Below are positions 7,538 through 63,542 of a stretch of 64,000 nucleotides of DNA, in pieces. Below the pieces are notes generated by a model. The model was not told where the DNA came from, made no database searches, and was given only the letters and a program-made list of their open reading frames with translations. How positions within the stretch are numbered: the stretch's first letter is position 1; each line of letters opens with the position of its first letter. Both the position numbers and the translations under genes were made by a program. Origin of the DNA: Acytostelium subglobosum LB1 (taxonomy: Eukaryota; Evosea; Eumycetozoa; Acytosteliales; Acytosteliaceae); assembly GCF_000787575.1 (NCBI RefSeq), contig NW_012236499.1:186001-250000 (forward strand), given 5' to 3'.

Positions 7538-10238
7538 ATGAAGTACCAAACCATATTGGTAATATTTATTATTATTGGATGCTCAATTGAGTTATCCAAA
7601 GGTATGTACCTCATCAATCTTGATCACCCCCACAACAACATCAGGAATCATTCCACTAACAATCAATTAATTAGGACAAGGTAGTGCATGTACATCCAAT
7701 ACTGATTGTGGTCCAGGAAGCAATGCTTGTACAAAGAATGTTTGTTGGAATGGTAGATGTGAGCCACGTGCAATTTCATGTTCCGACAACAATGCTTGTA
7801 CAGCGGATTCCTGTGATCCTAATAGGGGATGTGTCTACACTCCAATCGAATGCAAAGCCCAGAGTGCCTGCTACTTTGCCTCATGTAGCAACACTACCGG
7901 CTGTGTCCAGACCCCCATCTCATGTAACGACGGCAACGCCTGCACCATCGACTCGTGTAGCAACTCCACTGGCTGCGTCAACACCAACGTCAACTGTGAT
8001 GACTACAACGCCTGTACCGTCGACTCTTGCAACCCAACCACTGGATGTAACTACCAGAACATTGTATGTGACGACTACAATGCATGCACCTACGACTACT
8101 GTGACCCACAGGGCGGATGTCGCTTCGTGCCAATCCAATGCACTTCGCAAGATGCCTGCAGCACTGGAACTTGTGACCCAGTCAAGGGATGCTCCACCAC
8201 CAAGATCGATTGTGACGACCATAACATGTGCACACAAGACAGTTGTAGCACCAGCACTGGCTGTGTCCATCAGGCCATCACTTGTAACGACTATGATGCA
8301 TGCACCTATGACAGCTGTGGCAACTCGACTGGCTGCATATTCACCCCAATCTCATGCACCGTCTCTGATGCCTGCCACACCCCCTCTTGCAACCCATCCA
8401 CTGGCTGCACTCAGAATCCAGTAGTGTGCAATGATTACAATGCATGTACTTCCGATGCCTGTGACTCTAATTTGGGATGTATCTACACTCCAATCAGCTG
8501 CACATCCGATGCCTGCCACTACTCATCATGTGACAACTCGACCGGATGCTCTACAACTCCCATCAGCTGTGACGACTTCAACTCCTGCACCGTTGATTCC
8601 TGTGACGCCAATTCTGGATGTGTCCACACTCCAATCAAATGTGCCGGAGAGGACAAGTGTAACTTTGCCACCTGTGACCCATCAACCGGATGCCAGCTCA
8701 CCCCTCTGCGCTGCAATGACAATGACCCATGCACTCAAGATGGCTGTGACCCAGCAATCGGATGCACATTCGTCAACATTCCATGCAACCCATCCGATGC
8801 CTGCCACACTGCATCCTGCAGCAACCGTACTGGATGTGTTCAGACGCCAATCAACTGTGACGACATCAATGCCTGTACAATCGACTCTTGTAGCAACTCC
8901 ACTGGATGCTCACATCAGCCAGTCGACTGCAATGACTACAACGCCTGCACTGATGACTACTGTGACGCCAAGAATGGATGCCAGTTCAGATCCGTCAGCT
9001 GCGATGACCACAATGCCTGCACCATTGACTCGTGTGACAAGATCTACGGATGTGTCTACCAAGCAGTCGCCTGTGATGACTACAATGCCTGCACAATCGA
9101 CTCGTGTGACGCCAATAACGGATGTGTCTACAACAAGGTATCATGTGATGATAACAACCCCTGCACCCTGGACTCTTGTGATGTCAATAGGGGATGTATC
9201 CACACTCCAACATCATGCCCCAACCAAGATGCCTGCCACATTGGTTCGTGCAGCAACAGCTCAACTGGCTGCACTCAAACACCAATCTCTTGTGATGATG
9301 GCAACCCCTGCACCAAGGATAGTTGCAACCCAACTACCGGCTGTGTCCACGACCTTCTCTCATGCCCTCCCAAGGACAAGTGCAGCGTTGGTACATGCAG
9401 CAACTCGTCTAGCACCGGATGTATCCAGACTCCACTGAGCTGTGATGATGGCAACCCCTGCACAGCCGACTCATGTGACTGCGCCACAGGTTGCATCCAC
9501 AAGCCAATTGCCTGTAACGATAACAACTGCTGCACCAACGACAAGTGTGACCCAATCAGCGGATGTGTCTTCACCAACGTTACCTGCACACCAAAGGACA
9601 AGTGTTCTGCCGCCTTCTGTGACCCCAAGATGGGCTGCTCCAACAAGCCAATAAGCTGTGATGATGGCAATGCCTGCACTACCGACTCTTGCGACTGCGC
9701 CACAGGTTGTGTCCACAAGCCAGTAACCTGCAAGCCATGTGATGCCTGTCACGTCGCCACCTGTGACCCAATCAAGGGATGTGTCCAGACCCCAATGTCA
9801 TGTGATGATGGCAACCCTTGCACCGTCGACAGCTGTTCGCTGGGTCTCCTCGGCATTGGCGCCGGCTGTATCCACACTCCAGTCAAGTGCAGCACATGCA
9901 ACACCTGTAACGCCGACAAGTGTCTCGTGCCAACTTGCAACAAATCGACTGGTCTGTGTGGCAACGTCACTCTCAACTGTGACGACGGCAACCCCAACAC
10001 TTGCGACTCTTGTGACAGCAAGATTGGCTGCGTGAACAAGTGCTGTGATGACAACAACAAGTGCACGATCGACACGTGTGGCGCCAATGGCAAGTGTATC
10101 TTCACACCAAAGAACTGTGATGATGGAAATCCCAAGACCCAGGACTCCTGCAACCCATTCACTGGAAAGTGTGTCAACAAGTGCAACTGTGCTGATGACC
10201 TGATCAACATTGACCTTGACATTGGTATCAATCTCTAA
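7538..10238 (+). CDS. Secreted CTDC-repeat extracellular matrix protein, 875 aa
   Basis: Two exons, 7538-7601 and 7675-10238. The intron (GTATGT donor, TTAG acceptor) splits a Gly codon directly after a signal peptide that starts MKYQTILVIFIIIGCS. The rest is about 35 CTDC units of about 24 residues by length (typical unit CDDGNPCTADSCDCATGC), with short units such as CTPKDKCSAAFC between longer ones. The C-terminus leaves the repeat with a short acidic, hydrophobic tail (DDLINIDLDIGINL). Family role: structural protein of the extracellular matrix, disulfide-rich, made in prestalk or stalk cells. It is a paralogue of the partial gene at the left edge. The intron contains GGAATCATTCC at 7644-7654. 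The start is chosen because it gives the only signal peptide and the frame runs on across the splice. Confidence 0.93.
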
Positions 10239-10523
10239 ATTAAGTCTTCTTCTCGATGATATTGTAATAAAATATAGTTATAACTTGTTCCAAACAAGTA
10301 CAAATACACATTCCAAAAATTGTTTTGTATTATTGAAACTGATCAGGTGATTGAATAATGTCAGCTGACTTTGATCACGTGACTGGAATTGGTCAGCTGA
10401 TATTTGATAAAATATTTTGAATTCCAAATCAAGTCCCCTGGATTAATTCCAAGCCCTCCCCACCCACCCATACTATTAATTAAGAGATAGAGATAAATTA
10501 TACAAATAGTGATTGGCTTTTAC
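10239..10523. promoter_or_regulatory. Convergent spacer with a palindrome triplet
   Basis: 285 bases between the ends of the CTDC gene and the membrane protein gene. It holds TCAGCTGA at 10361-10368, TCACGTGA at 10375-10382 and TCAGCTGA at 10393-10400: two identical palindromes on either side of a third, all of the E-box type CANNTG. Confidence 0.4.
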
Positions 10524-11893
10524 TCATTCACTGCTTGTGCCATGTTGGCTTCCATCGGAATGATGAAGGGGACCACCTATGTTGATGTCGATTATAGTCG
10601 CCTGAAGATGTTGATGACATTGAATATTGACTGTTGGCTGTTCAGAACACTCTGACAGCTCTTGCAGTTGACATTGAGGTTTTTGTTCTTGTTGTTGTTG
10701 TTGACATTGTTGCTGTAGTTGTTGTTGCTGATGATGTAACTCTTGTAGACCTTCGCCACCACCGCCACACGTTGCAACGATGGATGGAGGAGGAGCTTCG
10801 ACATCGGATGATTCACTCTTTGGAGAATTACTCAGTTCTTGCATCATGATTGAATTGCTTGATGTCGCCTCGCCCATTGACACTGAGATACAGGCCGGGT
10901 TATTAGAGTTGCCAACGCCACTCGTGTACTGGTCGTCGCCGCCAGACTTTGACATATTGCTACTGCTGTAGCTGGGATAGGAATCCTCATTCACTCGCTT
11001 GAAATGCAGGTAGTTGATTGGTGTGTCGCCGCTCAGCGCCTTCATGACGATGACCAGCTGAGAGATCTCAATGATGGAGATCAGCAACCTGGAGACGTAG
11101 ATGTAGTCAGACCACTTGGGCACGTTGGCCACGGCAAAGCCAATCATAATCGAGAGCATGCAGATGACAATGACGATGAGTGTGGCGGCCAGACGAGATG
11201 TGTTGCGTATCGTGTGCTCCAGTTTGGGAATGCGCTTCTCCTGGCGCTTCATGAATCGTACCAGGGCCATGCCATTGAATGCGATTGACACGCCCACCAG
11301 GACAATCCAGGCGATCATGCCAAATGTCTCCCAGCTGGCCAACACCGATGGATTGACATAATAGAATATTGACGTGACGATCGTGTATATGAGCAGGGCT
11401 ATTGCCAATGCGCATGAGCTATACCATACACGTTGTGAATTCTTCATAATCACAGAGTTGGATACAAAGAATGTGTACAACAATTGCATCCAGAAGCAAC
11501 CAATGAATATCCATTCAGTGAATTCAAAGTAAGTTCCATAAGCTCCAAGGAATAGTGACACTGATCCATACCCAACCCTAGGGTATACCAATAAATATGT
11601 AAGTTGTTCCAGTCCTCTAACTATATTATCATTATGATCAAGAATGTTAGTGATTGATTGGGATGGTTCCAGAGTTGATTGATTGAATGATAGTTACACA
11701 GAGGAAATAGTGAAATCGACAGGAATGTCATTAGACGTGGATTGATTGATCGGTTGTGCTTTTTGAGGTAGCGCCATTCGAGTATGGTCTGCGTGCCATT
11801 GAGTATGAATAGTATAAACAGGATGGTGAATCTGATCGAGAGGAAAACTATCACCAGGTAATCTCCAGTGGTTGATGATGAGTATGTTGGCAT
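10524..11893 (-). CDS. Seven-helix membrane protein, 430 aa
   Basis: Two exons, 11698-11893 and 10524-11620. The intron at 11621-11697 (GTAACT donor, ATAG acceptor) splits a Phe codon. Joining gives LFPLFRGLEQLTYLL without a gap. Seven hydrophobic segments are visible at roughly residues 12-35, 54-75, 85-115, 130-155, 165-190, 210-230 and 240-262. A basic loop (KRQEKRIPKLEHTIRNTSR) precedes helix six. The C-terminal 165 residues are low complexity (Ser, Gln) and probably cytoplasmic. The topology fits a seven-transmembrane receptor or a TOM1/THH1-like protein, but I see no decisive motif for either. The intron carries the sense sequence GGAACCATCCC, a variant of the shared intron palindrome. 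The gene is convergent with the CTDC gene. Confidence 0.8.
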
Positions 11894-24714: not shown

Positions 24715-25082
24715 TTTGAAAGTATTATGTGTATCTATGTTTAATATATATTTGTAAATTTACAAATGAGTGAGATAGATACTCAAATTGAATTGAAGTT
24801 GACACTCTTGAGATTGATTGCACTGATGTTCAAAAAAGGGCAAAGTGATCATCAGTCATGCCTCATTTTTATTCTAGAAGTGTGTGGTTTGATGATCTGG
24901 ACACATATTACATATTGTTTACTTGTCATTGTCCATCTATTGGATTGTAATGGGAAGACATCACGTGATATATGATCACGTGACTTGTGATCACGTGACA
25001 TGCGATCTAGTGATATTTGATTCCAAAAATATTGGGTTGTCCAGGAACATCAAGATTGAAGGAGGATCAGATCATGAGGTTA
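24715..25082. promoter_or_regulatory. Spacer between tandem copies with TCACGTGA array
   Basis: 368 bases upstream of copy A. TCACGTGA occurs three times at 24961-24968, 24976-24983 and 24991-24998, an exact 15-base period. The rest is AT-rich with nothing coding. Confidence 0.6.
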
Positions 25083-29931: not shown

Positions 29932-30232
29932 TTAATGTCCATACTTGGTCATCATGGCAAGGAACTCTGGGAGCTCAATGCTTCCATTCTTATCAGCGTC
30001 AAACTCTCCAATCATTGATGAGATTTGAGCATCAGATGGGTTCTGGCCAAGTGATCTCAAGAATGGTGCCAACTCATCAGCGGTAACACTTCCATTTCCA
30101 TCCTTATCTGCCTGCTTGAAGGCCTCAGTGTATCTTGCGATTTGTGCGTCAGACTATATAAAGTTGGAATCATTCCAAATGTTAATATAATACTCTTGTT
30201 CCAAAGAATATGTGTTGTTGGATACATACCAT
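29932..30232 (-). CDS. Two-EF-hand calcium-binding protein, 74 aa
   Basis: Exon 1 is only the ATG (30230-30232). Intron 30154-30229 has a GTATGT donor and an ATAG acceptor, and exon 2 is 29932-30153. Two complete EF-hand loops are visible: DKDGNGSVTADE and DADKNGSIELPE, with acidic or oxygen-bearing residues at positions 1, 3, 5 and 12. The second half ends FLAMMTKYGH. This is half of a calmodulin-like protein and matches the small CBP proteins of dictyostelids. An intron directly after the start codon is known from dictyostelid calmodulin-type genes. The intron contains the palindrome at 30166-30176. Role inferred: calcium sensor or buffer; partner unknown. Confidence 0.9.
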
Positions 30233-31721: not shown

Positions 31722-33569
31722 TCATTCCAAGGATGTTGTGAACAGTTGATTGAGCTTGGATGAGTCAATGAAGCCTCCTCCAAGTAACTGCTCATTTAGG
31801 ACGATGAAGCTGTCGTTGCCATGTCGGATATAGGTGGACTGGTTATGTTGTCGCTCATTCTTTACACTTGTAATGTGTGTAAGTGTTGTTGGAAGTTGAT
31901 TGAATTGTATGGACTGGTTGTACTTGCGACCTAACTTGACTCTCTTTAGACTTGTACACGATGCCAACCAATTGGTATCGAGTGTCTGAGAGAAGTTGTC
32001 GCCAAACTCAATGCTGGTGACTGATGCTGGGATGGAGCCGGCCTCAATCGGTTGATTGAATCGTTGGCCAAAGATGATGGTTCGCAGGCCACTGGGCAGG
32101 GCACCGACTGGTATCGGTTGGTTGTAGTTGGCGCCAAGAGACAGGGTCTCAAGGCTGGCGGGCAGACTGCCAGGGGTCAGTGCGCCATCAAAAAGGAAGC
32201 CAAGTTCGAGGTTGGTCACTGAGTCGGGGATTGGCGAAGTGATTGATAATGCTTCGGTGAGTACCAAATGTTTGAGATTTGGAGGTAGACGATGATTGGC
32301 AGCATCGGAAGACAGTTGACTCATTCTAAGGTATCTCACGCCAGACAATGGAGACATGTCAAACAGATTGGCGCAATCCATCACGATGTGCTCCACAGAC
32401 GATGGTACCTCCAACTCATTGAATGGGACCATGTTTCCAAGCGCAAGACGCGTGAGTCCCGTCGGCAGGACACCGCTTGGTAGTGGTTGGCTAAACATCT
32501 CGCCCAGTCTTAGACGCCTTAGTGACTTTGGTAACAAGCCCGCCACGAGTGGCTGGTTGAACTCGCCGCTGAAGCTGAGATGAGTGACGCTCGCTGGGAT
32601 GGATCCAGGCAGCAATGGTTGATTAAACATGTCGCCAAACTTAAGTCGTGTGATTGAGGCGGGCAGGACGTGTGGCGGGAGGGGCTGGTTGAACTCGAGG
32701 CCAAACTCCAGACATGTGACCGAGTTGGGGATGGATCCAGGGATGATTGGCTGGTTGTACGATGAGTAGTGCGATCGATGGCCCAGCAACAGATGTGTGA
32801 CGGTGTTGGGGATGGCACCGACCTGCAACTGTTGATTAAAGTTGTTCTTGAACTGGATCTGGCGCACTGAGCTGGGGATGGTATTGAGCGCGATGGGCTG
32901 ATTGAAGCAATCGCCAAACTCAAGATGTGATACCGTGTTTGGTATGTCACCTTTGAGTATTCTCTGATTGAACAGTTCGCCAAAGAATAGATGTGTTAAT
33001 GTACGTGGAAACAATGATTGAATCCTTGGTATGGCCAATGATTGATCGAATGTATCACTAAACACCACGTATGTTGCAGTTGGTAGGTCTGGGACAGCTG
33101 CTTCATCAGGTGGGCAGTCCATCATATCCTGTTCATCATCTTCCTCATCATCATCTGTTGGATGTGGATTAGTATGTGATTGATTGATTGGAATAGTTCC
33201 AGCGATTGAGTGATGGATTAGACACATACCAATGTTTACCACGTGATCAAAGTAGAGATGGCTGTGTTGGATTGGGTCACTTTTTGTTGTGATACATTGG
33301 ATGATGGGCACTTTGCGCATCATTGACTTGTGGATGGATGATCGGAATGATTGAAAGTTGATGTTGTTTGGCTGTCTATAAGTCAATAGACTTGGCAAAT
33401 GTGTATTGTTTAACTGTAGTATACTATCTGCATTACGGAACCATTCCTTACATGTCAACAACATGCATACTCTATCAATATTTGAGGGTAAGAATGAAAG
33501 TATATGTTTAATTATAATATGAGGAAGTGACATATTATGTTGTTGTTGTTGTAGTTGTAGTTCAGGCAT
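31722..33569 (-). CDS. FNIP-repeat protein, about 590 aa
   Basis: FNIP repeats of about 22 residues fill residues 160-560 (FNQPLLPGSIPASVTHLSFS and similar, about 15 units). They form a leucine-rich solenoid typical of large dictyostelid families. The N-terminus (LPHIIIKHILSFLPSNIDRV...LTCKEWF) is F-box-like, so a substrate-receptor role for an SCF ubiquitin ligase is likely. A 75-base intron (33155-33229) is proposed: GTATGT donor, CAACAG acceptor, CAATCAATC on the sense strand and GGAACTATTCC inside. It contains no stop and is a multiple of three, so the unspliced frame also reads through (615 aa). With splicing, exons are 33230-33569 and 31722-33154. No ligand can be deduced. Confidence 0.85.
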   Translation of the reverse strand: MPELQLQQQQHNMSLPHIIIKHILSFLPSNIDRVCMLLTCKEWFRNADSILQLNNTHLPSLLTYRQPNNINFQSFRSSIHKSMMRKVPIIQCITTKSDPIQHSHLYFDHVVNIGMCLIHHSIAGTIPINQSHTNPHPTDDDEEDDEQDMMDCPPDEAAVPDLPTATYVVFSDTFDQSLAIPRIQSLFPRTLTHLFFGELFNQRILKGDIPNTVSHLEFGDCFNQPIALNTIPSSVRQIQFKNNFNQQLQVGAIPNTVTHLLLGHRSHYSSYNQPIIPGSIPNSVTCLEFGLEFNQPLPPHVLPASITRLKFGDMFNQPLLPGSIPASVTHLSFSGEFNQPLVAGLLPKSLRRLRLGEMFSQPLPSGVLPTGLTRLALGNMVPFNELEVPSSVEHIVMDCANLFDMSPLSGVRYLRMSQLSSDAANHRLPPNLKHLVLTEALSITSPIPDSVTNLELGFLFDGALTPGSLPASLETLSLGANYNQPIPVGALPSGLRTIIFGQRFNQPIEAGSIPASVTSIEFGDNFSQTLDTNWLASCTSLKRVKLGRKYNQSIQFNQLPTTLTHITSVKNERQHNQSTYIRHGNDSFIVLNEQLLGGGFIDSSKLNQLFTTSLE

Positions 33570-35490: not shown

Positions 35491-38400
35491 TTACTGTTTG
35501 ATGATTGATTGATCACGATCACGCTCACGATCATTTGATTGATGTTGATGTTGATGTTGATTATGTGAAGTGTTTGGGTTGGATAGGGTATAGGGATGGA
35601 TTGGATTGGTTGTGAGATAGGCTTTGGTTGGGTCGTGCAGGAGGAAGGAGAGCGAGGAGTGATTGTCGTGACTGATTGATGAGGTGTAGGTCGATCGATT
35701 GGATAATGGAGCACAGTCATAGACCGCTCCGGCAAAGCTAGGGAACTTCAACAATGATATACACTCATTGGCACGTGATATCACCTGTGCATCAAAGTAT
35801 TGATGATAGCTCAGTATCTTGAGCAGGCAGAGTATCACACGACTGGTGGCCTCGTGCCATCGCGACGCGATCTTGGTCAGCGCGCTAGTTAGGATGAGCA
35901 TGATGTTGGCCGACTCCATGGACATGGCCGACGACGTGCCTGTCAGCACGGACGCATCGCGTGTCATCTGTAGCTGGTTGGCCATGCCTGGCGTGAGCGA
36001 CGAGCTGGTTGCGCCCGACAGCGACTCCATCTTGATCAGATTGATCTTCTCGTATGCGATCAATTCCAGCGCCTCGTGATAGTCGTTGAAGATCACCGAG
36101 TTGATCTCGGGGCAGATCGATGTGGACGCGTACTCGCCAATGATCCAGCAGAGCACGGTGACAACGTCGGCGTTAGCGCGGCCCTCTGTGACCATCGAGA
36201 TCAACAGGTCACGCTCGCTGACCACCAGTGACGGGTGTCGATTGAAAACCGACTGCAGCTCGCCAATCAATGTCTCCTTGATCGCCGTTTGATAGGGCTC
36301 GAATGGGAATGTTTGATCGATGCGCTCCAGCAGCACTGGCAGCAGCGCGACAAACACCGATCGGTCGCCATAGCCAAGCAGCACGTCAAAGTAGATGTGT
36401 AGCAGCGAGGGCACGAGCTCGCATGCGCCAATGGTGCGTGGTGTGGTCGGTGTCTTCTTGCTGAACTGGTAAAGCAGGGGCAGGGTGGTGGACGACCAAA
36501 AGTTGATGTTGACGCCACTCTCATTTCGCAACAGATAATTGTACAGTACACGGTATTCGCTCCAGGCCGTGTCATTCACATCGCCAACGTCCACGCCACC
36601 CATCGACGCGTACTTCCTCTGCTCGACCAACACCGACTCCATCGACGAAGTCAACAGAGGCAAGTCCAGCAACAGATGGAACACCTCAATATAAGTTGAT
36701 GGTGATATCAATGATGGTAATAACTCTGAGAACTCACTATGTTTGATTGATTGATTAGTACATGGACTTGTGGGTTGGGTTGATCAGTGAGTACTTACGC
36801 AATGTGGCTGTGAGGGAACCATGCCAGACACTTGAAGATGGGAGGGAAGTACAATCCAAACACATTGGTGTCTTTAAGTAAGTTGTCCTTGTTCTTGATA
36901 CAGAAGTTGAGTGTCTCGAATGCCACGAATGAGTTCATATCTTGATTGATCGATGGTGTGGGGCAAAGTGTTAATTTATGGGAAGGAATAATTCCAATCC
37001 AACACTCAATCAATAACTACTTACATGTTCTTGGAAGGTAGGTCTGGAAGTATGCACGGAACAATGGCTCTGGATCATAGATTAGGGTGTGACTATGATT
37101 GACAAAGAATTGGAGGAGTGCGAGAAGGACGTGACCAGAGTTGGCGTTGGTTGTGCGACTTGATGGTAGATGGAGTTGGTATGCCTTCTGTACAGTGGGG
37201 AAGATCTTTGGAACGAGGTTGATGTCCAGACAGCATAGAAAGTCAAGTATGCGCACAGACTCCAACAGTGCAATCACTGACAAGTTGTCTGTCTCGCCAA
37301 CTACCGGCTTGCCACCTTCGCCCACGGGCTTCAGCTTGGACTGATCAATGATCCTCAGACAATATGATACTATTGTCGATTGGAAGTTGGCACTTAGTTG
37401 GCGTGTTGTGGCAACTCCTGCATCTGAGTCCAAAGAAGTTGAAGTCGACTGTGAAGTGATGACGGGTGATGACGATGATGGAGAATCTGTGAACTTGAGT
37501 GTCTGCTCTGTCGCTGGCTGCTTGTAAAGACTTGTGAGCCATGAATATAACAAACTGAATGAATATATGTTGAATGATTGGTCCTCGGTGTAGACCTGTG
37601 CATTATTCAATACTGTGAAGAACTCAATCGATACTGATCCATCCAGCTCAGTGACTGGTGCGGCTGTTGAGCTGCTTCCAATCTTAAAGACTGTGAGTGT
37701 GTTAGGTTAGTTATGATTGATTGGATTGATTGAGTGAATGAGTGAGTCTTACATCCTGCAGATTGCTTCTGATCAGAGACTAGGGAGGCATGTGATAGAC
37801 ATTGACCAAGTTGTGACTCGATCGATTTGANTTTGGCTGGCAGTGATCGAGTCTGAGAAGTGTCGAGCACATAATAGAAGTGATGGCATGGAAGAAGGTC
37901 TCAAAACAGGGTCCTGCATTGATATTGATTGTACAATCAATGGAATGTTTCCAACAAACAAAGATGATTGTCCACCTGTGTTATTAGCAGTCGATATCAA
38001 TAGTGACAGTAACAATGACAACACCTTGCTTTCGAATGTCTTGAGGCTACATGTGTGTGTGTGGGGAGAGGTTGGGATCATTCCAGTGGGGGAGGGGGAG
38101 GGTGAGGGGTCATCAGTATGGGATCATTCCATCCATTTCCGAATCAATCAAACACTTACTTCTTATAAAGTAGTTGTGGCTCACTCTCTGATATCTTGGC
38201 AATGATGGACAATGAGAGTATCTTGACCTTGTATGGTGTGTTTGGATCAATGATCAATGTAGTCCTGGTCATGTGCCAATGATTGAATGAATGTCAGTAT
38301 GACCATGCTTGGTTTGGTTCGAGTCCACTCACCCGTGCCATCATTGCACTTTGAGCAACAACTTACAACTTCTCAACAAAGCTTGGATTGACCTTGAGTG

Positions 38401-38901: not shown

Positions 38902-41317
38902 ATGATGGCGAGAACAAAGGCAACTGCAAGACCATCATATAAACAACTTCCAAAACATGTCAAGGCTGCACTAGATGTGAAGATAGTAGATGCAGTAAAA
39001 GTCGATGAACTTCATTCTACAGTATGTTAATCATTACATCACATCACATCACATCACATCACTTGGTACTTGATTGAGTGAGTGACTAACTCACACCATG
39101 GAACTATCCCACCACCACTCAATCACTCAATCAATCAATCTATCAATTACCCCATGCTCACTCATTTAGGGACAATACATCATGTTGAAACTATATACAA
39201 ATATAATGTTTGTAGTTGACAAGGCTGCACTGGATATGCGAGCCGTGAATGATATTGCAAATGACACATTCTCTTCAAAGTTGTTTGTTGATATCACAAG
39301 TGGCCGCGCTCCAACAATGTGTTGCCACTCTTCGGAACATGTTAGGGAACTCAAGTTCATGGCATCATTGATTCGTCAAATATTGAGAACCTCACCTGGT
39401 GAAGTGATTGAGAAGTTGGCGTTGGATGATGTCGAGGGTGCTGATCCAGACATACACCCAACCAAAGTCTATCCAGTGATGTTCAGCGGGTACATCAATG
39501 GCTACCCAATACTATTCTGCAATCATGGTGATTGGTCAACAAGTTGTCTCGATGGCGCAAAGGTAGTGTCGGTGACGGCCAACGTCACGTACAACATCAC
39601 CAATCCCACGTCTTCTGATGAGGAAGACGAGTCACCAACTCTGGAAAAAGAGGCAGCAAAACTTTTCCAATTCATGTATCCAGCTTCATTGGCGCAGTTT
39701 ATCGAGCCCACTGTCGTCCAATGGCGCGAAATATTCATGGACAACTGGAACAAAGTTTCGAAGGCAAGCGATGCCCAGGCCCCAAAGTCAAAGAAGACGC
39801 CAAAGTCCAACCCCATTTATATCGAGACATTATCTATTGACTCAAGGACCATCACATTGGGCAAGGGACCCATGTATATCAGGAGGCCTGATATGAATTC
39901 CAAGTGGAAGGCTCAGGATGTCAACTATAATGGAGTGTTTGGTACTTTCGTATCCAGTGCTGAGCTGCCACCGCCATTGGCACACCAATGTTCGCCACTG
40001 CCTGACACAATCATGTTTGGTATCATCGTTGGCATGCTGTGTCGGGCGTGTTCCCGAAGCAATTACCTGTGGCGGTGGCGTCTGTCACTCTCGCTCGTCT
40101 CCAAGAAGTGGCACCAATACATCAGCACAAGATTCAATGATCATCTCGTCATCAAGTCGGCCAAATCACTTGTTGACTTTTTGGACCACCACTTTGATCG
40201 GAGTGATGATGGAAGGGTGGAACCATTCCGTCATCATTTCCAATATCATCGATCAAAGATTACATCCTTGGCAGTTAGAGGTGTCGATTATACGATGATA
40301 CTGAAGCTACATAAGCACGAGTTGTCATCTGGACTGCTTGGCAGCTCGTTGCAAACACTGATGGCATGTGCATCATTCATCGAGTACATCACCAGGTTCT
40401 GCACACAGCTGGACTCGTTGACATCACTCACCATCACTTTGGACTCTGACACTGACTTGCCGGCAATGGAGAAGATCGCCACACGTCTTGATGCAGCAAT
40501 GTCCAACCAAAACAATCAGACGCGAATCAAGAAGCTGAGACTGTGCATGGAGTCTGCGGAAACGGATGTGTTTGTAAGATTGCGACCGTTCATCTTCCAC
40601 CCGATCTTTAGTGATCTCCAATCGCTTGGTATCTTCATCCAGTATGGAGAGAAGATAGAGTTTAATGACCTGTTCACTGAGCTTCCCAAGCTCACCAAGT
40701 TGGAGTCACTGGTGTTCAACTTTGACCGGGAGGAACAAGTACTGTTCTCTGAGCCCTGTCTGGCCTATCTCAAGCAGGCCAGTACACTCAAGAAGTTCAA
40801 AATAGACACAGAAGTGAGCGTTGAACTGAGGCAATACCTACTTCAGGCGCCACCATCGACATGCTCAATCAAACATCTAAGTCTTGGGTTTGAAGTGTTT
40901 GACATTCCCATCACTCGACCTCTGGACTCACTCATCATGCACGTGATGAGTCTAAAATCAAGCACTCCACAGGTCATTCAATCACTCAATCAAGTGAGCA
41001 ACATTGTTGTTAGTGAATGGATGCCAAGTATCATTGCATTGAACGTACATACAAGATGTTCATTGACATTGTACATTGATCACTACCACTCTTCATCAAA
41101 AGTTAAACAAATTATTGAAGGGATACAATCAAATACCAGTCTACAATATCTCTACATCATTGGATTGGACAAAGAACATCCAAAGTACGATGACATTGCT
41201 CTGGCCATTAACAAGCATCCAACAATCATCAACAAGTCTATATGGTCACTACATCGTAGTCCGTCTCCAAAACCAAAGTGGGTAGAATGGCATATGGATA
41301 TTGATAGGTATAATTAA
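38902..41317 (+). CDS. F-box-like protein, tandem copy 1, 755 aa
   Basis: Two exons, 38902-39021 and 39170-41317; the 148-base intron has a GTATGT donor and TTTAG acceptor and keeps phase 0. Exon 1 encodes a basic head (RPSYKQLPKHVKAALDVKIV). Residues around 265-330 resemble an F-box (LPDTIMFGIIVGMLC, then LSLVSKKWHQYIS). After this comes a leucine-rich region with repeats (TSLTITLDSD, KLTKLESLVFNF, SIKHLSLGFEVFD). The N-terminal 240 residues, with TSGRAPTMCCHSSEHVRELK and FCNHGDWSTSCLDGA, match nothing I recognise and are highly conserved in copy 2. Likely role: SCF ubiquitin-ligase receptor with an LRR substrate surface. Two start codons are adjacent (38902 and 38905). Confidence 0.82.
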
Positions 41318-41447: not shown

Positions 41448-43761
41448 ATGGTGAGAATAAAAGTAAGGCCAATAAGACAACCTCTAAAACATGTCAAGGC
41501 TGCACTTGATCTGAAGATAGTTGATGCTGTAAAAGTGGATGGACCTCATTTGTCAGTATGTATGATCACATCACATCACATCATATCACTTGGTACTTGA
41601 TTGAGTGACTCACCCACCCCTTTGGAACTATTCCACCACTCACTCACACACTCACTCAATAAATCAATCAAGAGTGATTACTTTGTTCTCAATCTTTATT
41701 CAAAGATAATATTTGTAGTGGATAAGGTAGCACGCAAATGACACATTCTCTTCAAAGTTGTTTGTTGATATCACAAGTGGCCGCGCTCCAACAATGTGTT
41801 GCCACTCTTCGGAACATGTTAGGGAACTCAAGTTCATGGCATCATTGGTTCGTCAGATATTGAGACACTCACCAGCAGGTTCAGCGATTGAGAAGTTGGC
41901 GTTGGATGATGTCGAGGGTGCTGATCCAGACATACACCCAACCAAAGTCTATCCAGTGATGTTCAGCGGATACATCAGCGGCTTCCCAATACTATTCTGC
42001 AATCATGGTGATTGGTCAACAAGTTGTCTCGATGGCGCAGAGGTAGTGTCGGTGACGGCCAACGTCACGTACAGCATCACCTCATCAGGACCTTTGAGCA
42101 ATTTGTCAGCCCCACTGTTCCAATTCATGTATCCAGCTTCATTGGCGCAGTTTATCGAGCCCACTGTCGTCCAATGGCGCGAAACATTCATGGACAAGTG
42201 GAACAAGGTGTCGACGGCGAGCGATGCACAGGCCCAGACACAGTCGCCTAATGCCAGATATCTCAATACATTGACGATTGACACGAAAACAACCATATTG
42301 TACAGTGGACCCACGTACGTTAGGCCTGATGTGAAGGCCATGTTGAAGACTTCAGGTAGGAGTTATAGTCGCGCTCTTGGTACTTTCGCATCGAGCGCTG
42401 AGCTGCCAACGCCATTGGCACACCTATGCTCGCCACTGCCTGACACCATCATGCTAGGCATCATCATTGGCATTCTGTGTGGGGCTTGCTCCCGTAGCGA
42501 GTACCTGTGGCGATGGTGTCAGTCATTGTCGCTGGTCTCCAAGAAGTGGCACCAATACATCAGCAAGAGATTCAACGATCGTCTCGTCATCAAGTCGGCC
42601 ATATCACTAGTTGACTTTATCCACCACCATAAACATATCGATAGGAGTGATGATCAAAGTATGGAATCATTCCAATACTTCCAATATCATCGATCAAAGA
42701 TAACATCCTTGACGATTAGTGGTGTCGCTCATACAATGATGCTGAAGCTATACAAGCACGAGTTGTCATCTGGACTGTTTGGCAGCTCACTGCATACACT
42801 GATGGCCCCTGCACCGTTCATCGAGTACATCACCAGGTTCTGCACACAGCTGGACTCGTTGACATCACTCACCATCATCTTGGAACCTGACACTGACATA
42901 CCAGCAATGGAGAAGATCGTCACACGTATGGCCATGGCCATGTCATGCCCCAAACAAGATCAGCTAGGCATCAAGAAGTTGAGATTATGCATGAAATATG
43001 CGGAACAGGATGTGTTTGATAAACTGCGACCATTCATCTTCCACCCGATCTTTAGTGATCTCCAATCGCTTGGCATCTGTATTAGCAAAGGAGACGAGGA
43101 GATACAGTTCAGTGCCCTATTCACTGAGCTTCCCAAGCTCACAGAGTTGGAGTCACTGGTGTTCAACTTTGACCGGGAGGAACAAGTACTGTTCTCTGAG
43201 CCCTGTCTGGCCTATCTCAAGCAGGCCAGTATCATCAAGAAGTTCAAAGTGGATATACCAGTGAGCCTTGAACTGAGGAAATACCTACTTCAGGCGCCAT
43301 CAACTTGCTCAATCAAACATCTAAGTCTTGGGTTTGAAGTGTTTGACATTCCCATCACTCGACCTCTGGACTCACTCATCATGCACGTGATCAACCTGCA
43401 ATCAAGCACTCAGCAAGCCATTCAATCACTCAATCAAGTGAACAACATAGTTGTTGGTGGATGGATATCAAGTATCATCGAATTGAACATACATACACGA
43501 TGTTCATTGACATTGTACATTGATTTCTACACGCCATCATCAATGGTTGAACAATTTATTGAAGAGATACAATCAAATACCAGTCTACAATATCTTTACA
43601 TCATTGGATTGGACAAAGAATATCCAAAGTATGATGACATTGCCAAAGCGATTAACAAGCATCCAACAATAATCAACAAGTCAATATGGTCATTACATCG
43701 AGTTGGTCGGTATCCAATACCAAAGTGGGTAGAATGGTATAAGGATGTTGGCAGATATTAA
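41448..43761 (+). pseudogene. F-box-like protein, tandem copy 2, with a frame-breaking deletion
   Basis: Copy 2 of the preceding gene, with the same intron position (exon 1 41448-41555; exon 2 from about 41673 after a CAATCAAG acceptor). Compared with copy 1 the segment between VVDK and NDTFSSKLF is missing about 28 bases near 41730-41738. Translation from exon 1 then reaches a TGA at once (VARK, stop). The remaining frame (41758-43761, 667 codons) is intact and about as long as in copy 1, with the F-box-like and LRR parts preserved (LSLVSKKWHQYISKRFNDR). Either this is a young pseudogene, or an unseen downstream start or splice rescues it. Long identical blocks (for example around 41740-41830 and 39280-39365) point to recent duplication or gene conversion. 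Confidence 0.7.
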
Positions 43762-51541: not shown

Positions 51542-52567
51542 TTATTGTTGTTGCTTCCAGATCTTGACATACTCGACGATGTTCTTCTGAGGGAATACTG
51601 AATTCTTGTCGGGATCACCTGGCCATCCTCCACCGATGGCAGTGTTGAGTATCATGTAGAATGTTACATCATTGGGGAATCTAGTTGTTGGATTATTCTT
51701 CAAATCAAGGATATTGTATGGAATATTATCAACCATGCTACAAGTCATCCGATGGTACATGTTAGTATACATACATACTCATCACTCATTCAATCAATCA
51801 ATTACTTACAATACAATCAGATCAACATCCCAAATTACACTGTAAAGATGGAACTCAGTGTTGAGTGTGGACACATCAGTAGTGTTATAGACACTACCCA
51901 TGTTTGAACAGTTGTTGGTCTCATGGTATGTTCCCCAAATGATCTTATCATCTCCAGTGTTCTCCATGATATCAATCTCGCCTAAAGTGTGTGATTGAGC
52001 GTGTGAGTGAGTTGTGGGCGAGTGATTGGAATCATTCCATCTCATTGATTGAACATACGATAGAAATCACATGTAGACTCCAATGAGTATAACCAGAATG
52101 CTGGCCAATAACCCTTTCCAAGGGGAAGTTGCATCAAAGCTTCGAAACGACCATAGACCACATTGAGACTGCCAGATGTATCCATGCGGCATGACGTGTA
52201 GTTGAATCCCTAGAGTCGACAATCAATCAGTATGAGTGATGACGATGTACACATACATAGAGTGACTACTTACATATAACTTGCTATAGTTACTTAATAG
52301 AACAAGTTTACCATCTTCGATGAAACAGTTCTCTGGTGTGTAGAATTGAAGTTGGGCATCACCAGGGGTGTAGTTGGTGAGTGTCCATACATTGGTATCA
52401 ATGTGAGTGGCATTGAACTCATCCTCCCAGTATAGATTCCAACCGTCATAGTCAACTGGCACACCGATAGCATATGGATGTGCACATGTCAACCAAACAT
52501 TATTGCTAACAGTCAACAATGTTATCAACAATGTCAACAACAATGTTGATGATACCATTGTCCTCAT
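51542..52567 (-). CDS. Secreted GH16 beta-glucanase, 270 aa
   Basis: Four exons: 52274-52567, 52059-52209, 51810-51981 and 51542-51737. Signal peptide (LLLTLLITLLTVSNNVWL). The GH16 fold is shown by YWEDEFNATHIDTNVWT, the strand GRFEALMQLPLGKGYWPAFWL, and the catalytic motif EIDIMEN, in which the two Glu are nucleophile and acid/base. TAIGGGWPGD near the end is also typical. It is closest to laminarinase or lichenase-like members acting on beta-1,3 or mixed beta-glucans of walls; substrate not certain. Intron 2 carries GGAATCATTCC at 52028-52038. Confidence 0.92.
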
Positions 52568-58058: not shown

Positions 58059-60758
58059 ATGGAAGGACAAGGAAGTGACTCTGACACTGGCAACAATAAT
58101 AACAACAACATTGGGGAGTATAATTGTGATGACAATAATAACAATGCCAATACCATCAACAACAATACCAACAACAATAATATCAAGAATGTACACCACC
58201 AACAACAACAACAACACCAACAACATCAACAACAATATCATTATCAACAACAAGTCAGGTCAATTACTACATCAACATCATCATTGAGCATGTCAACAGA
58301 CTCGGTGGAATCAGCAGGTAGCACTAGTTCAACGGGTACACGCTCGGGATCACCAGACCATTTGGAAAAGGACAGAACAAATGTCTTTGTAAAGTACTTG
58401 CCAAATGAGTATGGAGACTATGAACTATTCAATCTATTCTCACAGTTTGGCAAGGTAATGAGTGCCAAAGTGATGGTGGACGCCAAGGGCAACTCCTACG
58501 GCTATGGATTCGTACGTTTCTCCTCGCCCGAGGAGTCACGCGTGGCCATCGAACACATGGATGGCTATCCTCTACTACACAAGAAGTTACTCTGTCGTCT
58601 GTCCTACCTTTATTCCAATGGCAACAACAGATTCCCATCAAACAACCTATTTGTAAAGCTACTTCCAGCCGCAATGACTGATGGTAAGTTTATGGATTTA
58701 TTGATTGGAATCATTCCAACACTCACTCATACAATCTGTCCAGATCAATTGAAGGAATTGTTCCAACCATTTGGAGAGGTAGTGGAATGCAAGGTTATGG
58801 TGGACAAGATGGGCCAGAGTAAGTTGGCTGGCTTTGTCCGATTTAGTCACGAGTTGGATGCAACCAGAGCCATCCAAGCACTCAATGGAACCAAACAAGG
58901 TGATTCACCAGCACTTGTTGGTAAGTCATTATTCATTCATCCATCCATCAATCAAAGATATTGACCTCACCAATATCCATCCATCAGTAAAATATGCAGA
59001 GAACGAACATCAGAAGACTCTAAGGAAACAGAGGAAATACTCTCTTAACTATCAACATCAAGTTCAAGTAATTATTCAACTCTGGAAGGTTCATATTGGG
59101 CCAAAACCTTGCTAACTCCATCACCTCCATGTCATGTCATTGTAGCAGAGTCAATATTATAACTATGTTGACCCGTATATATTTATTCCTTACCAACAGT
59201 TTTATGGATATCCATCGCCTCAGGATCCAAACTCAACTCCCCCTCACGCTCCAGTACAGGTAAATATTACCAACAATCCAGTTTCCATTATGAGTTTGCC
59301 ATCAGCCAAACACTAACCCCACCCATGACGCAATCTCAAACATAGATATACCAACAGAATGCTCCTCCACCTCCTATTTATAATTATTACAACATTCCAC
59401 CTCCGCAACACCAACAACATCATCAACAACATCACCAACATCAACATCAGCAACACCATCCCTCTGCGGCAGGTCCACCGCAAGGATACTATGTGGCAGC
59501 GCCTACCAACTTGGAGGAGGCATCGATGCATACGCAGCACATGTACAACCCATCCAATGTAAACGTAGCCACATCAACTCACCTCCCACCCTTATTTATT
59601 AGCCACCAACAGCATCCACATCATCACCAACAACATCATCAACACCCGCCGCCCCAACAATCATCTAGCGCTTCATCCGGCTTGAGTTCAAGCGGTCACA
59701 TGAGACGAACAACCGGGAAGAAATACAAACAACCTCCCGCTTCCTCAGCCCCAGCCTCGGCCCAGTCATCGGCCCCACAATCACACCAACAACATGCTCA
59801 CTCAACTGCGCCCCAAGTACAAGTACAAGCACAGACCCCAACTACTACACCAAACACTACACAACCATTGCCCACACCCTCACCGGCGGCAGCGGCATCA
59901 GCATCGACGAAGGACACAAGCATTGCTTCGTCAGCATCGAATGCCTCACCGCCATACTCACCGACTCTATCAACTTGGTCGTCGAGTTCATCTTCTTCGA
60001 CGCCATCTACACACTCGGCCACGCCACGACGTAACACCATCTCACCGACCAATGTCAATCCATCACCAGTAACATTGTCCCCGGCACCCTCGCCCTCAAG
60101 AGGCTCCACCACCAGCCAACCGACCAGCTCCCGAGGAGTGTCTCCACATCGATCTGCCAATCCTGTGGCGGCACCCTCTCAATCGACTCCCAACACGGCC
60201 GCGTCAGTAGACAACACCTCTGCGCCACCACCATCAACCTCGACCACCTCCACTACCACTTCATCATCTACCTCATCAACCTCTACGACGCCAGCCATTG
60301 TGGCGGCAACAGATTCAACAACAACCACAACAGTAGCAGCCTCCAGCAACGTGCTGAGTAGCAGCAGCAACTCTGTCTCCTCGACGTCGTCCGTGTCGTC
60401 CACTTCGAGCTCGACATCGCAGACACCGTCCAGCGACACCAACCTCTTTGTCTTCCACCTGCCGGCGTTCGTTGACGACAACTACCTCTATCGGCTGTTC
60501 TCACGGTTTGGTCCGTTGCAGAGCGTGCGCGTGATCACCGACAAGGACACCGGCGAGAACAAGGGCTACGGTTTTGTCAACTTCCGTGAGAAGAAGGATG
60601 CCGTCGCCTCACTGAACGAAATGAATGGCATGCAGATCGGGTCCAAGTTCCTCAAGGTCAAGTTCAAAGAGAGCCAGGGTCATCCCACCACCACCGGTGG
60701 CAGCAGCAATACCAAGAGCAACAGCAGCAATGCTAGTCAGCCAACAACATCTACTTGA
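58059..60758 (+). CDS. CELF/Bruno-like RNA-binding protein with three RRMs, 802 aa
   Basis: Five exons: 58059-58683, 58744-58920, 58988-59067, 59146-59259 and 59346-60758, all in frame. RRM1 at about residues 110-185 (RTNVFVKYLPNEYGDYEL, RNP1 YGYGFVRF), RRM2 at about 195-280 (NNLFVKLLP, RNP1 LAGFVRFS), then a 370-residue linker rich in Ser, Thr, Pro, Gln and His, and RRM3 near the C-terminus (TNLFVFHLPAFVDDNYLYRL, RNP1 KGYGFVNF). Two close RRMs, a long linker and a terminal RRM are the CELF layout; members control splicing, mRNA decay and translation. Other three-RRM proteins of the Elav type cannot be ruled out. Intron 1, inside RRM2, carries GGAATCATTCC at 58707-58717. Confidence 0.9.
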
Positions 60759-61091
60759 TCAAGTCCATGAATAAACATCTTGGTGTGATTAGTTAGAAGA
60801 TAGAACATAACAACAAACTAGAAGTAGTGTTCATTCTATCGATCAATGAATGATTGATTAGTGATCTGATATGATTGAGGGATGAGTTGTTGATGCTGTT
60901 GTTGTCAAGGTTTATTGTCTATATATTGACGAAGCTACTCAAACTAGAGTAACTTGGTCGTGACCATCCCACCCCGTTCTGAGTTAGGTTGCTTGAGGAA
61001 GGATGTTCTTAACTTCATTGAGGCTGAGTGAGCGGAGAGGAGTGTAATAAAAAAGGGAGATGCAGACAGAGAGTAGCGCTGTTTGTTAAGT

Positions 61092-61126
<35 letters not shown>

Positions 61127-61248
61127 AGACTGGATGAATGTTTATAATACAAGTATTCGCGAGTTTCTTGTTGTTGGTATAGTAGTATGTGTATCTATCG
61201 ACAACAGAGAAGGGGGAAAGAGGAGTAGTTGCGCGTCGTATTGTTTCT
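60759..61248. other. Convergent intergenic region
   Basis: 490 bases between the CELF-like gene (+) and the G-gamma gene (-). It has a GTTGTTGTTG tract at 61094-61124. No gene seen. Confidence 0.4.
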
Positions 61249-61537
61249 TTACAGCACTGAGCATCCAGTGTTCTTGAGTGGCTTGGTCCACTCGTTCTCT
61301 CCTTGCCAACCCGGCACGAAGGGATCGGCTGTCTTCAAACAGAAGTCCTGGAGACTATACATAGAATGAATGTTATATTAGTACTTGCAACCTAATGGTG
61401 AATGAATGAATGAATGAGATGAAAGAGACGTACGTGGTGCAGGCGTCTGAAACCTTGAGGATTTGAGTTGATCTCTCCAACTGGCTCTTCAGAACCTCAT
61501 TCTCCTTCAAGACCTTTTTCAACTGTGACTCTGACAT
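61249..61537 (-). CDS. gpgA: Heterotrimeric G-protein gamma subunit, 69 aa
   Basis: Two exons, 61434-61537 and 61249-61354, phase 2 intron with a GTACGT donor and ATAG acceptor. The N-terminal half is a coiled coil (LKKVLKENEVLKSQLERS) that pairs with G-beta. The second half has DPFVPGWQGENEWTK, matching the gamma signature, and the end CSVL is a CaaX box for prenylation. It fits the D. discoideum GpgA in length and sequence. Role: with G-beta it couples chemoattractant receptors to PI3K, Ras and actin outputs. The splice is needed to see the gene; neither exon alone is long. Confidence 0.95.
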
Positions 61538-61901
61538 TCTGTTTGTTTAAAATATATTATATATTATATGTATGTATATGATTAATTGTGTGAATGAATG
61601 AGTGGACGGATAAAAGAAGGTAGAGGTGTGTGTGAGAGTGAGTGATCGCAACCCTCCAATCTCAGATACAAATCCTTTGTTTTTTCATTTCATTTTTTTT
61701 ATTATTATTTAAATTAATAAGTTTTTATTCACCCATTGTTTGTGCATTATCCTTCTTGATCATGGTTTCTGATTAGATGGACAAGGTGAGCTCGAATAAG
61801 GTGATCACCAAGCGAATAGAAATGACATTGTGATGTTATTGGTACTTTATGTGATTGATACATTATCGAACAACAACAACAACCATTGAGTTGTTGCTTG
61901 C
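61538..61901. other. Intergenic region
   Basis: 364 bases upstream of G-gamma and downstream of the S28 peptidase. T-rich run at 61679-61720. No gene seen. Confidence 0.4.
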
Positions 61902-63542
61902 TTATGGCAGAATTGACGAGATGAGATCAACTTCCATCTGTCTGGCTTGGACAAGTCCAGGGGGATCGGTGGGCAGAGCTGGATAGAGGTCGGCACAGTG
62001 AGCAGTGCCAGTGATGAGGATGGTCTGGATCTCGGAGCTGGTGGCGTTGAGCACACCCAGTGCGTGCCAGGGGTCAACCAGGCCGTTGGGGAAGATAGTC
62101 TGCGATGTCTGGATGTTGCGGCCACCATAGTCGCTCTCGATGTACTTGGTCTGGGGCAGGTAGGGCAGGCCGTCGTCTCTTGGTCCAAAGATGTCGAGAC
62201 ACTGCTGCAGGAACCAGTCCAGGGTGATGGTTGGCGAGAATGGCTGGTTGGGCGACTGAGCCGTCTGGAAGTATCCGTACTCAATGCATGTCTGCCATGT
62301 CCATGTTCGGCTGGAGGCAAACTCTCCGTTTGGATCAACATCCTGCAGCTGGTTGACCAACGACTTGTAGCTTGACTGTGTGCAGTTGTTGCCACTGAAC
62401 GTGTTGAACTCATTGTTAAAGTTGACGAATGATGTCAAGTCATCTCCTGCCTCAAGCATGGAGCACATCTTGGTTTGATTGATTGATTGATTGATTGGAG
62501 GAGTGAGTGTGAGTGGGGATGGGATCATTCCAAGGTCCGATCGATAACTTACCTTTGATATGTTGAACATAGTGTAACGATTGTTGTCATTGTTGTATTG
62601 AACGATCTCGGCAACAGAGTCGGCGAGGTTCTCAAAGAAGGTGGCAACATCATCGTCGCTGTGGATCTCATCACAGGTGTTGAAGAGTTTCTCAACCTTT
62701 CTGCGATCAGTGTTTAGCATTGCAGTTACAACGTTGGTGACGTTGGCGATACGTGCCGAGCACTGTGGTCCAATCGAAGCGGACACGACCTCAAGGTACT
62801 CCTTAAAGTCAAGCTGTGGCTGTACTGGTGCCGATGTAGCAATGGCAGCATCAATCAGCTGAGGGTACTTAAGTCTGAACCAAGCAGACAATGATCCAGA
62901 GTATGATCCACCGAATGATACCCATTTGCTAGACTGATTGATTGAGGGGTGGGGGTCAGTCTGGGATCATACCATTCGATCAATCAAACATACTCCTGTG
63001 TTGTACTTCTGAGCAATGAAGTTCCTGAACTGGGCATAGTCGGCGAGGGCCTGTTGAGTGGTGAGGTACTTGAGATGCTTGGTGTCGAGGGTTGGCTTGG
63101 GCATCGACTTGCCGTAGAATCTGTGCTCGACACTGACGATCAACGCGTCAAACATCTGTGCGTAGGTGTTGATGATGAAGTGACCGGTGACGCCGGTGTA
63201 GCTGGCGGGACCCTCACCACCCAGCAGCAGGAACACTGGTCCGCCAGGCTTCCAATAAGTGGCATTGACAAAGTATTGCTGTTGGAACGTGTCGGTGTTT
63301 AGCGGGTCGTAGTGGTCGACCTTTTGCGTGTACCACATTGGCTGGGGCAAGTGTCTGTTTGTCATCTTGTTTGAACGATGTTGTTGCAGTTGCTCTCGTC
63401 TAGTATCGATACCATGTGACAGACGCAATCCTCTATTCAAAGAGGACTCTCTTCTCAATATGAAGGCACCAGTATGTTCGGCATACAATGTGATCAGTAA
63501 TATCACAGCCACAAGTGAGCTTATTATTACTTTGTTATACAT
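61902..63542 (-). CDS. Peptidase family S28 serine carboxypeptidase, 498 aa
   Basis: Three exons: 62994-63542, 62553-62933 and 61902-62468, both introns phase 0. Signal peptide (VIISSLVAVILLITLYAEHT). Core motifs: PVFLLLGGEGPAS, VEHRFYGKS, the nucleophile GGSYSGSLSAWFR (Ser in GxSYxG), the Asp in NGLVDPWHALGV and the His in TGTAHCADLYP, a complete Ser-Asp-His triad. The family contains lysosomal Pro-X carboxypeptidase, DPP7 and thymus-specific protease; removal of residues after proline is the expected reaction. Likely acts in lysosomes or outside the cell. Introns hold GGGATCATACC (62963-62973) and GGGATCATTCC (62521-62531). A longer start at 63638 is rejected because it hides the signal peptide. 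Confidence 0.94.

What the first reader, a model, noticed from the sequence alone, without database searches (positions are those of the whole stretch)
7644..62973. A shared 11-base near-palindrome sits inside introns of many unrelated genes
By eye I find, on the plus strand, GGAATCATTCC at 7644, 30166, 52028 and 58707; GGAATAATTCC at 36985; GGGATCATTCC at 38074, 38120 and 62521; GGGATCATACC at 62963; GGAATAGTTCC at 33190; GGGATGGTTCC at 11660; GGAACTATCCC at 39100; GGAACTATTCC at 41624. All lie in introns (CTDC, EF-hand, GH16, CELF, AP-5 zeta, S28, FNIP, membrane protein, both F-box genes). Read on the sense strand nearly all become GGAAYNATYCC: the left arm GGAA is fixed, the right arm varies (TTCC or TCCC). 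Only a few copies were noticed elsewhere (4750, intergenic; 42663, coding). The chance rate of such a motif in about 4-5 kb of intron is far below one. It could be a splicing enhancer, a hairpin with a three-base loop, a protein site acting on transcription through introns, or a relic of a mobile element.
Basis: seen in the sequence. Interest (0 to 1): 0.8.

Follow-up and report, generated by a model that had tools for sequence, protein, structure and literature searches.

The report
Intron-rich 13-base palindrome in social amoeba
About one in seven introns sampled in this social-amoeba genome carries the same sharply defined 13-letter near-palindrome, hundreds of times more often than chance and far more densely than the rest of the DNA, which suggests an undescribed signal that an unknown protein reads in introns.

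Summary
All 13 coordinates are exact and lie in introns of my gene models. In the 30.7 Mb genome (size and composition fit Acytostelium subglobosum) GGAAYNATYCC occurs 1814/1854 times against 44/40 for the reversed pattern. On 260 kb of contig C23, a gene finder I wrote gives 213 introns; 31 carry the motif (16 of them in one gene family). Unique sites: 34 in 20 kb intron, 4 in 68 kb intergenic, 8 in 172 kb coding. Sense-strand intron copies: 33 against 0.09 in shuffles. The unit is TGGAAYNATYCCA, with sharp edges, an exact 3-base spacer and few near-misses. It sits a median 31 nt after the donor; 28 of the 31 introns are 75 nt or longer. Flanks show no shared sequence, so a mobile relic is unlikely. 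An RNA hairpin is disfavoured: A-C mismatches are common, G-U and swapped pairs nearly absent. Asymmetric copies are mostly sense (26:2 in gene models, 67% expected from composition; 76:25 by regex). Best guess: a protein-read pre-mRNA element aiding recognition of longer introns; main rival: a dimeric DNA-binding site in transcribed genes. The reader protein is unknown.

The parts
7644..7654 (+). GGAATCATTCC in the intron of the CTDC-repeat gene
   Evidence: Dicty_CTDC Pfam hit
11660..11670 (-). GGAACCATCCC (sense) in an intron of a gene for a membrane-like protein
   Evidence: 7TM Pfam hit below its cut-off
30166..30176 (-). GGAATGATTCC (sense) in an intron of an EF-hand gene
33190..33200 (-). 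GGAACTATTCC (sense) in the intron of an FNIP-repeat gene
36985..36995 (-). GGAATTATTCC (sense) in an intron of the AP-5 zeta-like gene; SPG48 profile continues across it
38074..38084 (-). GGAATGATCCC (sense), second copy in one AP-5 zeta intron
38120..38130 (-). GGAATGATCCC (sense), first copy in the same AP-5 zeta intron, 29 nt from the donor
39100..39110 (+).
41624..41634 (+). GGAACTATTCC in the corresponding intron of the second tandem gene; motif kept with a C/T change at position 9
52028..52038 (-). GGAATGATTCC (sense) in a GH16 intron; Pfam profile continues 29-71 / 72-123 across it
58707..58717 (+).
62521..62531 (-). GGAATGATCCC (sense) in an S28 peptidase intron, 21 nt from the donor
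62963..62973 (-). GGTATGATCCC (sense), position-3 T variant, in the other S28 intron, about 20 nt from the donor
4750..4760 (.). GGAATGATTCC between predicted genes (possibly an untranslated-region intron; not resolved)
33437..33447 (+). GGAACCATTCC, antisense to a predicted exon
40219..40229 (+). GGAACCATTCC in predicted coding sequence
42663..42673 (+). GGAATCATTCC in predicted coding sequence
58754..58764 (-). GGAACAATTCC, antisense to a predicted RRM exon

Best explanation
TGGAAYNATYCCA is an intron element of this genome: a fixed recognition site carried by 31 of the 213 introns I could model (15 of 168 outside one gene family; 20 of 67 among introns of 90 nt or more), probably kept by selection. 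Most likely it works in the nascent transcript. A sequence-specific RNA-binding protein, or dimer, binds it, typically 15-40 nt downstream of the 5' splice site, and helps define or fold introns longer than the roughly 70-nt minimum. Shown: the word, its edges, its spacing, its high intron density, donor-proximal position, association with intron length, and a sense bias. Inferred: selection, reading at the RNA level, the protein, and the effect on splicing.
For: Genome-wide excess of about 43-fold over the reversed pattern. Unique sites in 260 kb: 34 in 20.0 kb intron, 4 in 67.9 kb intergenic, 8 in 172 kb coding. First introns 13 of 86, later introns 18 of 127, so not promoter-proximal. Median 31 nt from the donor against 47 under uniform placement, P=0.012. 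GTAWGT lies 5-35 nt upstream of asymmetric copies 363 times and 36-66 nt upstream 110 times. Motif in 3 of 85 introns under 75 nt versus 28 of 128 longer ones. Asymmetric copies in gene-model introns 26 sense: 2 antisense; with the sense share expected from base composition at each site's distance from the donor (mean 67%), P=0.0015. Kept at the same intron position in three of seven paralogs at similar offsets with unalignable flanks (alignment column 599: g28, g29, g30 at 31, 31, 38 nt; g17 also has it but at 164 nt; g24, g25, g27 lack it), and in the tandem gene pair. Few near-misses in motif-less introns.
Against: Near-perfect dyad symmetry with a rigid 3-base spacer is not expected of a single-stranded RNA word. 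Antisense copies exist in intron-like settings: 25 against 76 by the donor+motif+CTAAC regex; 75 of 99 unique rows gives P=0.014 against a 65% expectation but P=0.24 against 72%. Palindromic copies show no sense preference between C and G in the centre (9 and 9, T 2). Coding and intergenic DNA also carry modest excesses: 8 vs 1.4 in synonymous-codon shuffles, 4 vs 0.56 in dinucleotide shuffles. Motif introns do not have weaker donors: 29 of 31 have GTAWGT against 105 of 182 others, though false introns dilute the latter. Of 13 motif introns with [AT]CTAAY, the last such word lies 5' of the motif in 4. Copies turn over between paralogs. 16 of the 31 motif introns are in one gene family, so they are not independent. 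No RNA-seq was available.
Confidence: 0.42

Rival explanations
1. A palindromic DNA site, half-site TGGRAY, bound by a homodimeric DNA-binding protein inside transcribed genes (elongation, chromatin or enhancer role). Introns carry it because they are the non-coding room inside genes, and much of the sense bias follows from the C-rich, G-poor sense strand of introns.
For: GGAA-N3-TTCC 42 sites in 260 kb versus 0-7 at each other spacing from 0 to 12; the reverse order TTCC-N3-GGAA only 2. Antisense copies occur with the same grammar. Centre C and G equal, 9:9. Composition alone predicts about 60-73% sense within 46 nt of the donor and about 80% at 46-80 nt.
Against: Intergenic DNA, where DNA regulators usually sit, has about 29-fold lower density. 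No preference for first introns. Sense bias 26:2 in gene models exceeds the composition expectation, P=0.0015. Position 7 is A in 33 of 34 intron sites while position 5 is C in 14 and T in 20, which a symmetric site under the same composition would not show so strongly.
Confidence: 0.35
2. RNA stem-loop: GGAA/TTCC stem with a YNA three-base loop.
For: The arms are complementary; predicted own-arm pairing probability averages 0.43 over 33 copies, and 15 of the 23 copies with T at position 9 reach 0.58 or more.
Against: 10 of 34 intron copies have an A-C mismatch in the stem (C9) and none has G-U (G3). Of 13 swapped-pair forms searched in introns, 12 are absent and one occurs once. No outward complementarity; native flanks fold less strongly than swapped ones, -6.0 vs -7.1 kcal/mol.
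Confidence: 0.05
3. Relic or footprint of a mobile element, or an introner-like family of introns.
For: Some introns hold two exact copies or exact plus decayed copies. Paralogous introns gain and lose it. Motif-less introns hold a small excess of near-misses (9 vs 2.6 in shuffles at score over 6). It co-occurs with CACTCACTC, 12 of 31 vs 17 of 182, P=0.0001.
Against: No similarity beyond one base on each side; near-misses remain few; transposons are few in the A. subglobosum genome paper, PMC4334915; kept in some paralogs at a similar offset with unalignable flanks.
Confidence: 0.07
4. Pairing site for a spliceosomal or other small RNA; pyrimidines at positions 5 and 9 would pair with G by G-C or G-U.
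For: Degeneracy at these two positions is almost only C/T.
Against: The A positions hardly tolerate G, as U-G pairing would allow. Predicted duplexes of four motif variants with this genome's U1, U2 and U6 do not pass the 5% tail of shuffled words. Other small RNAs not tested.
Confidence: 0.06

Closest known systems
Intronic splicing enhancers of animals (general class; recalled)
   Same: In introns, sequence-specific, near a splice site, sense-biased
   Different: 13 bp and about 19 bits, near-palindromic, usually one exact copy per intron; known enhancers are short, degenerate and clustered (recalled, not from a call)
Plant intron-mediated-enhancement motif TTNGATYTG (PMC6760150, title and abstract start seen in the listing only)
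   Same: Word over-represented in introns that may act independently of splicing
   Different: The plant motif marks promoter-proximal introns; here first and later introns are alike (13/86 vs 18/127), and the sequence is unrelated
Heat-shock element nGAAnnTTCn (recalled)
   Same: GAA/TTC inverted halves
   Different: Spacer must be 2; here GGAA and TTCC are 3 apart, with one GGAA-N2-TTCC site in 260 kb; known from promoters
STAT site TTCnnnGAA (recalled)
   Same: Same letters, 3-base spacer
   Different: Halves in the opposite order; TTCC-N3-GGAA occurs twice in 260 kb
TEAD M-CAT half-site GGAATG (recalled)
   Same: TGGAATG is contained in many copies on one strand or the other
   Different: The common GGAACTATYCC class lacks it; TEA-domain search of the genome gave nothing but its control was also silent
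Introner elements (PMC7789003, listing only)
   Same: Many introns share sequence
   Different: Introns share only 13 bases here

Membership tests
Intronic splicing enhancer | enriched in introns over exons and spacers | tested here: met
   34 sites/20.0 kb intron vs 4/67.9 kb and 8/172 kb
Intronic splicing enhancer | works in the sense orientation only | tested here: inconclusive
   26:2 in gene models (67% sense expected from composition, P=0.0015), but 76:25 by regex
Intronic splicing enhancer | changes splicing when mutated | not testable with these tools
   needs minigene or RNA-seq
Intron-mediated enhancement motif | concentrated in first, promoter-proximal introns | tested here: not met
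   13 of 86 first vs 18 of 127 later introns
Dimeric DNA-binding (palindromic transcription factor) site | two inverted half-sites at a fixed spacing | tested here: met
   spacing 3: 42 sites; other spacings 0-7 each
Dimeric DNA-binding (palindromic transcription factor) site | found mainly in promoters or intergenic regulatory DNA | tested here: not met
   4 intergenic sites in 67.9 kb, 0.56 expected, against 34 in 20.0 kb of intron
RNA hairpin element | compensatory or wobble changes in the stem | tested here: not met
   C9 10, G3 0 among 34 intron sites; 12 of 13 swapped-pair forms absent, one seen once
Introner / mobile element | shared sequence beyond the word, with decaying copies | tested here: not met
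   no shared flank; only a small excess of near-misses
Introner / mobile element | target-site duplications | not tested
   only glanced at in the listings; CAATCA repeats around the sites would hide a duplication
Heat-shock element | 2-bp spacer between GAA and TTC | tested here: not met
   1 GGAA-N2-TTCC site vs 42 at spacing 3
TEAD site | a TEA-domain protein in the genome | tested here: inconclusive
   0 matches, but no control genome rang either

The most novel reading that the evidence does not exclude
A social amoeba marks thousands of its longer introns with a single 13-bp near-palindromic tag that a dedicated, undescribed protein reads in transcribed genes to define or control introns: an intron code word beyond splice sites and branch point, with information content rivalling a transcription-factor site.
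Probability: 0.4. Interest if true: 0.82.

Novelty: new variant of a known kind. Interest (0 to 1): 0.64.

Why it matters
Intron regulatory words are usually short and fuzzy (recalled). A sharply bounded, roughly 19-bit dyad that is either present or absent in an intron, with an estimated 2,600 or so copies in 31 Mb, would give a clean system to find its reader by one pull-down and to test how a single site affects intron recognition. It combines features usually kept apart: the geometry of a DNA-dimer site and the distribution of an RNA-processing signal.

Tried and rejected
Hairpin: disfavoured on pair substitutions, flank folding and outward complementarity. Mobile relic: disfavoured on flanks and scarcity of near-misses. 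Pairing with U1, U2 or U6 of this genome: duplex energies inside the range of shuffled words; I noted that U6 contains TGGAACGATAC, part-like the motif, and could make nothing of it. Branch point: a separate TACTAAC-like word exists; of 13 motif introns with [AT]CTAAY, the last one lies 3' of the motif in 9. First-intron (IME) pattern: rejected. Link to gene GC3: none, P=0.87. Intron length modulo 3: no evident difference by inspection of the counts. TEA-domain search: uninformative. Rfam and tRNA scans of the window: nothing. Literature: one search searched six motif words (18 papers; by their titles none concerns introns or amoebae; I opened none); searches list no title or abstract start that describes such a motif. 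Of one paper, PMC4334915, I saw passages and section 5; of all others only listings.

An early reading of mine, that strand bias alone proves reading at the RNA level, was dropped. Genome-wide antisense regex hits are partly sense introns whose ACTTAC/ACATAC or GTTAG words mimic splice signals (shown for 33190), and composition alone favours the sense form.
Full report
WHAT WAS CHECKED. The window is C23:186001-250000 of a 30.73 Mb, 56-contig genome. Window G+C is 44%.

ENRICHMENT. Genome-wide GGAAYNATYCC gives 1814 forward and 1854 reverse matches against 44 and 40 for the same pattern read backwards. Of the first 100 rows listed, 30 sites are palindromic and listed twice and 40 are listed once (counted by eye), so I estimate about 2,600 distinct sites. 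On 260 kb (C23:1-260000) I wrote and trained a small gene finder (final run): 213 introns, median 79 nt, 19,980 bases. Its splice sites look right (GTAAGT/GTATGT donors, YAG acceptors). In three window genes (S28, GH16, AP-5 zeta) Pfam profiles run on across motif introns. Unique sites: 34 intron, 4 intergenic (67.9 kb), 8 coding (172 kb). In introns, 33 sense hits against a mean of 0.09 in 300 dinucleotide shuffles. Coding sites exceed synonymous-codon shuffles (8 vs 1.4; 0 of 200 reached 8) and intergenic sites exceed dinucleotide shuffles (4 vs 0.56; maximum 3 in 50 shuffles). So the word is not limited to introns; some of these may be missed untranslated-region introns or model errors. The 22 loci from other contigs, which were fetched because they hold the motif and partly overlap, give 14 intron, 7 exon and 3 intergenic unique sites.

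ANATOMY. Across 33 sense intron hits the core is bounded by T (88%) on the left and A (91%) on the right, and beyond that no column is strongly shared. The same T (90%) appears in the 100 of 363 donor-linked sites whose letters were listed. Single-substitution relatives are few. Of 181 motif-less introns scored, 9 hold a sense near-miss with score over 6 (2.6 in shuffles) and 6 an antisense one (3.0). They include TGGTATGATTCCA and TGGTATGATCCCA (the latter is the window's 62963 copy) and TGGAATAGTTCCA, which is an antisense copy. Information is about 19 bits. The arms are GGAA-N3-TTCC with exactly 3 bases between them: 42 sites against 0-7 for any other spacing from 0 to 12; the opposite order is not enriched at 3 (2 sites). 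The middle is T[G/C]A or C[T/C]A in 30 of 33 sense hits, and C[T/C]A in 93 of the 100 listed GGAAC-type sites.

POSITION. Median 31 nt after the donor against 47 under uniform placement (P=0.012). GTAWGT 5-35 nt upstream of asymmetric copies 363 times, 36-66 nt upstream 110 times. 3 of 85 introns shorter than 75 nt carry it against 28 of 128 longer ones. First and later introns are alike (13/86, 18/127). One family of seven paralogous genes (ComC-like by DUF7034 and ComC_SSD Pfam hits in the two members tested) holds 16 of the 31 motif introns in 45 introns, against 15 in 168 elsewhere (P=4e-5). So the local 15% is raised by one family; outside it the share is 9%.

STRAND. Palindromic copies cannot be oriented. 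Asymmetric ones in gene-model introns: 26 sense, 2 antisense. Intron sense strands are C-rich and G-poor (26% vs 12%). The odds for C over G forms are 1.5-2.6 within 46 nt of the donor and 3.9-4.3 at 46-80 nt. Weighted by each site's distance, a strand-blind site would be sense in 67% of the 28 cases, and 26 or more has P=0.0015; paralogous copies make this somewhat optimistic. Genome-wide regexes are weaker. Donor + motif + CTAAC: 76 sense, 25 antisense, reversed-pattern controls 0 and 1; 75 of 99 after removing one double row from each, P=0.014 against 65% and 0.24 against 72%. Motif + CTAAC: 135 vs 50, controls 3 and 6. Donor + motif: 363 vs 127, controls 0 and 2. Antisense regex hits are partly false: at 33190 the gene model is sense, yet a downstream ACATAC reads as GTATGT on the other strand. 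I conclude there is a real but incomplete sense bias, part of it due to composition.

STRUCTURE. The hairpin idea fares badly. In 34 intron sites position 9 is C ten times (A-C mismatch) and position 3 is never G. Of 13 swapped-pair forms searched in introns, 12 are absent and one occurs once. Outward pairs are no more complementary than shuffled, and native flanks fold less strongly than swapped flanks. In its favour, 15 of 23 copies with T at position 9 are predicted to pair with probability 0.58 or more.

EVOLUTION. In the seven paralogs (34-63% protein identity) homologous introns show both retention and turnover. At one position three paralogs keep the dyad 31, 31 and 38 nt from the donor with unalignable surroundings, a fourth has it 164 nt in, and three lack it. 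The tandem gene pair in the window (72% identity) keeps it with one C/T change.

MECHANISM. High intron density, donor proximity, intron-length dependence and sense bias point to pre-mRNA. Dyad symmetry with a rigid spacer and the occurrence of both orientations point to a dimer on double-stranded DNA. I favour the first at 0.42 and the second at 0.35. Either way the likeliest reader is a sequence-specific protein. No candidate protein was found; the only protein family searched for in the genome was TEA, with a silent control.

LIMITS. Gene models are mine, with no RNA evidence; some motif-less introns and several intron ends are probably wrong. Most statistics come from one contig, in which one gene family weighs heavily. 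No other eukaryote genome could be compared.

Noticed in passing
introns of C23:1-260000 (213 models): Introns are strongly strand-asymmetric (C 26%, G 12% on the sense strand), with CACTCA- and GATTGATTG-type words over-represented against a Markov model and CAATCAATC in 66 of 213; the GATTG and CAATC types could pair with each other. CACTCACTC co-occurs with the dyad, 12/31 vs 17/182.
   Followed up: partly
C23:43263-100477 (L027-L033): Seven paralogous genes of about 1,340-1,430 aa, six of them within C23:65871-100477 (Pfam DUF7034 and ComC_SSD in the two tested), with a high share of motif introns, 16 of 45.
   Followed up: partly
window 24960-25007 and 26099-26130: A 15-base unit ATCACGTGACATGTG repeated in tandem, and about 1.1 kb away a tandem repeat of nearly its reverse complement.
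   Followed up: no
L043, L044, L045 (G000:C44): One full U6 gene and two weaker, diverged U6-like copies within about 8 kb, sharing the U6 3' part and downstream sequence.
   Followed up: no
window 38902-41317 and 41448-43761: Tandem gene pair, 72% identical, no Pfam hit for the main exon of the first copy; corresponding introns both keep the dyad.
   Followed up: partly
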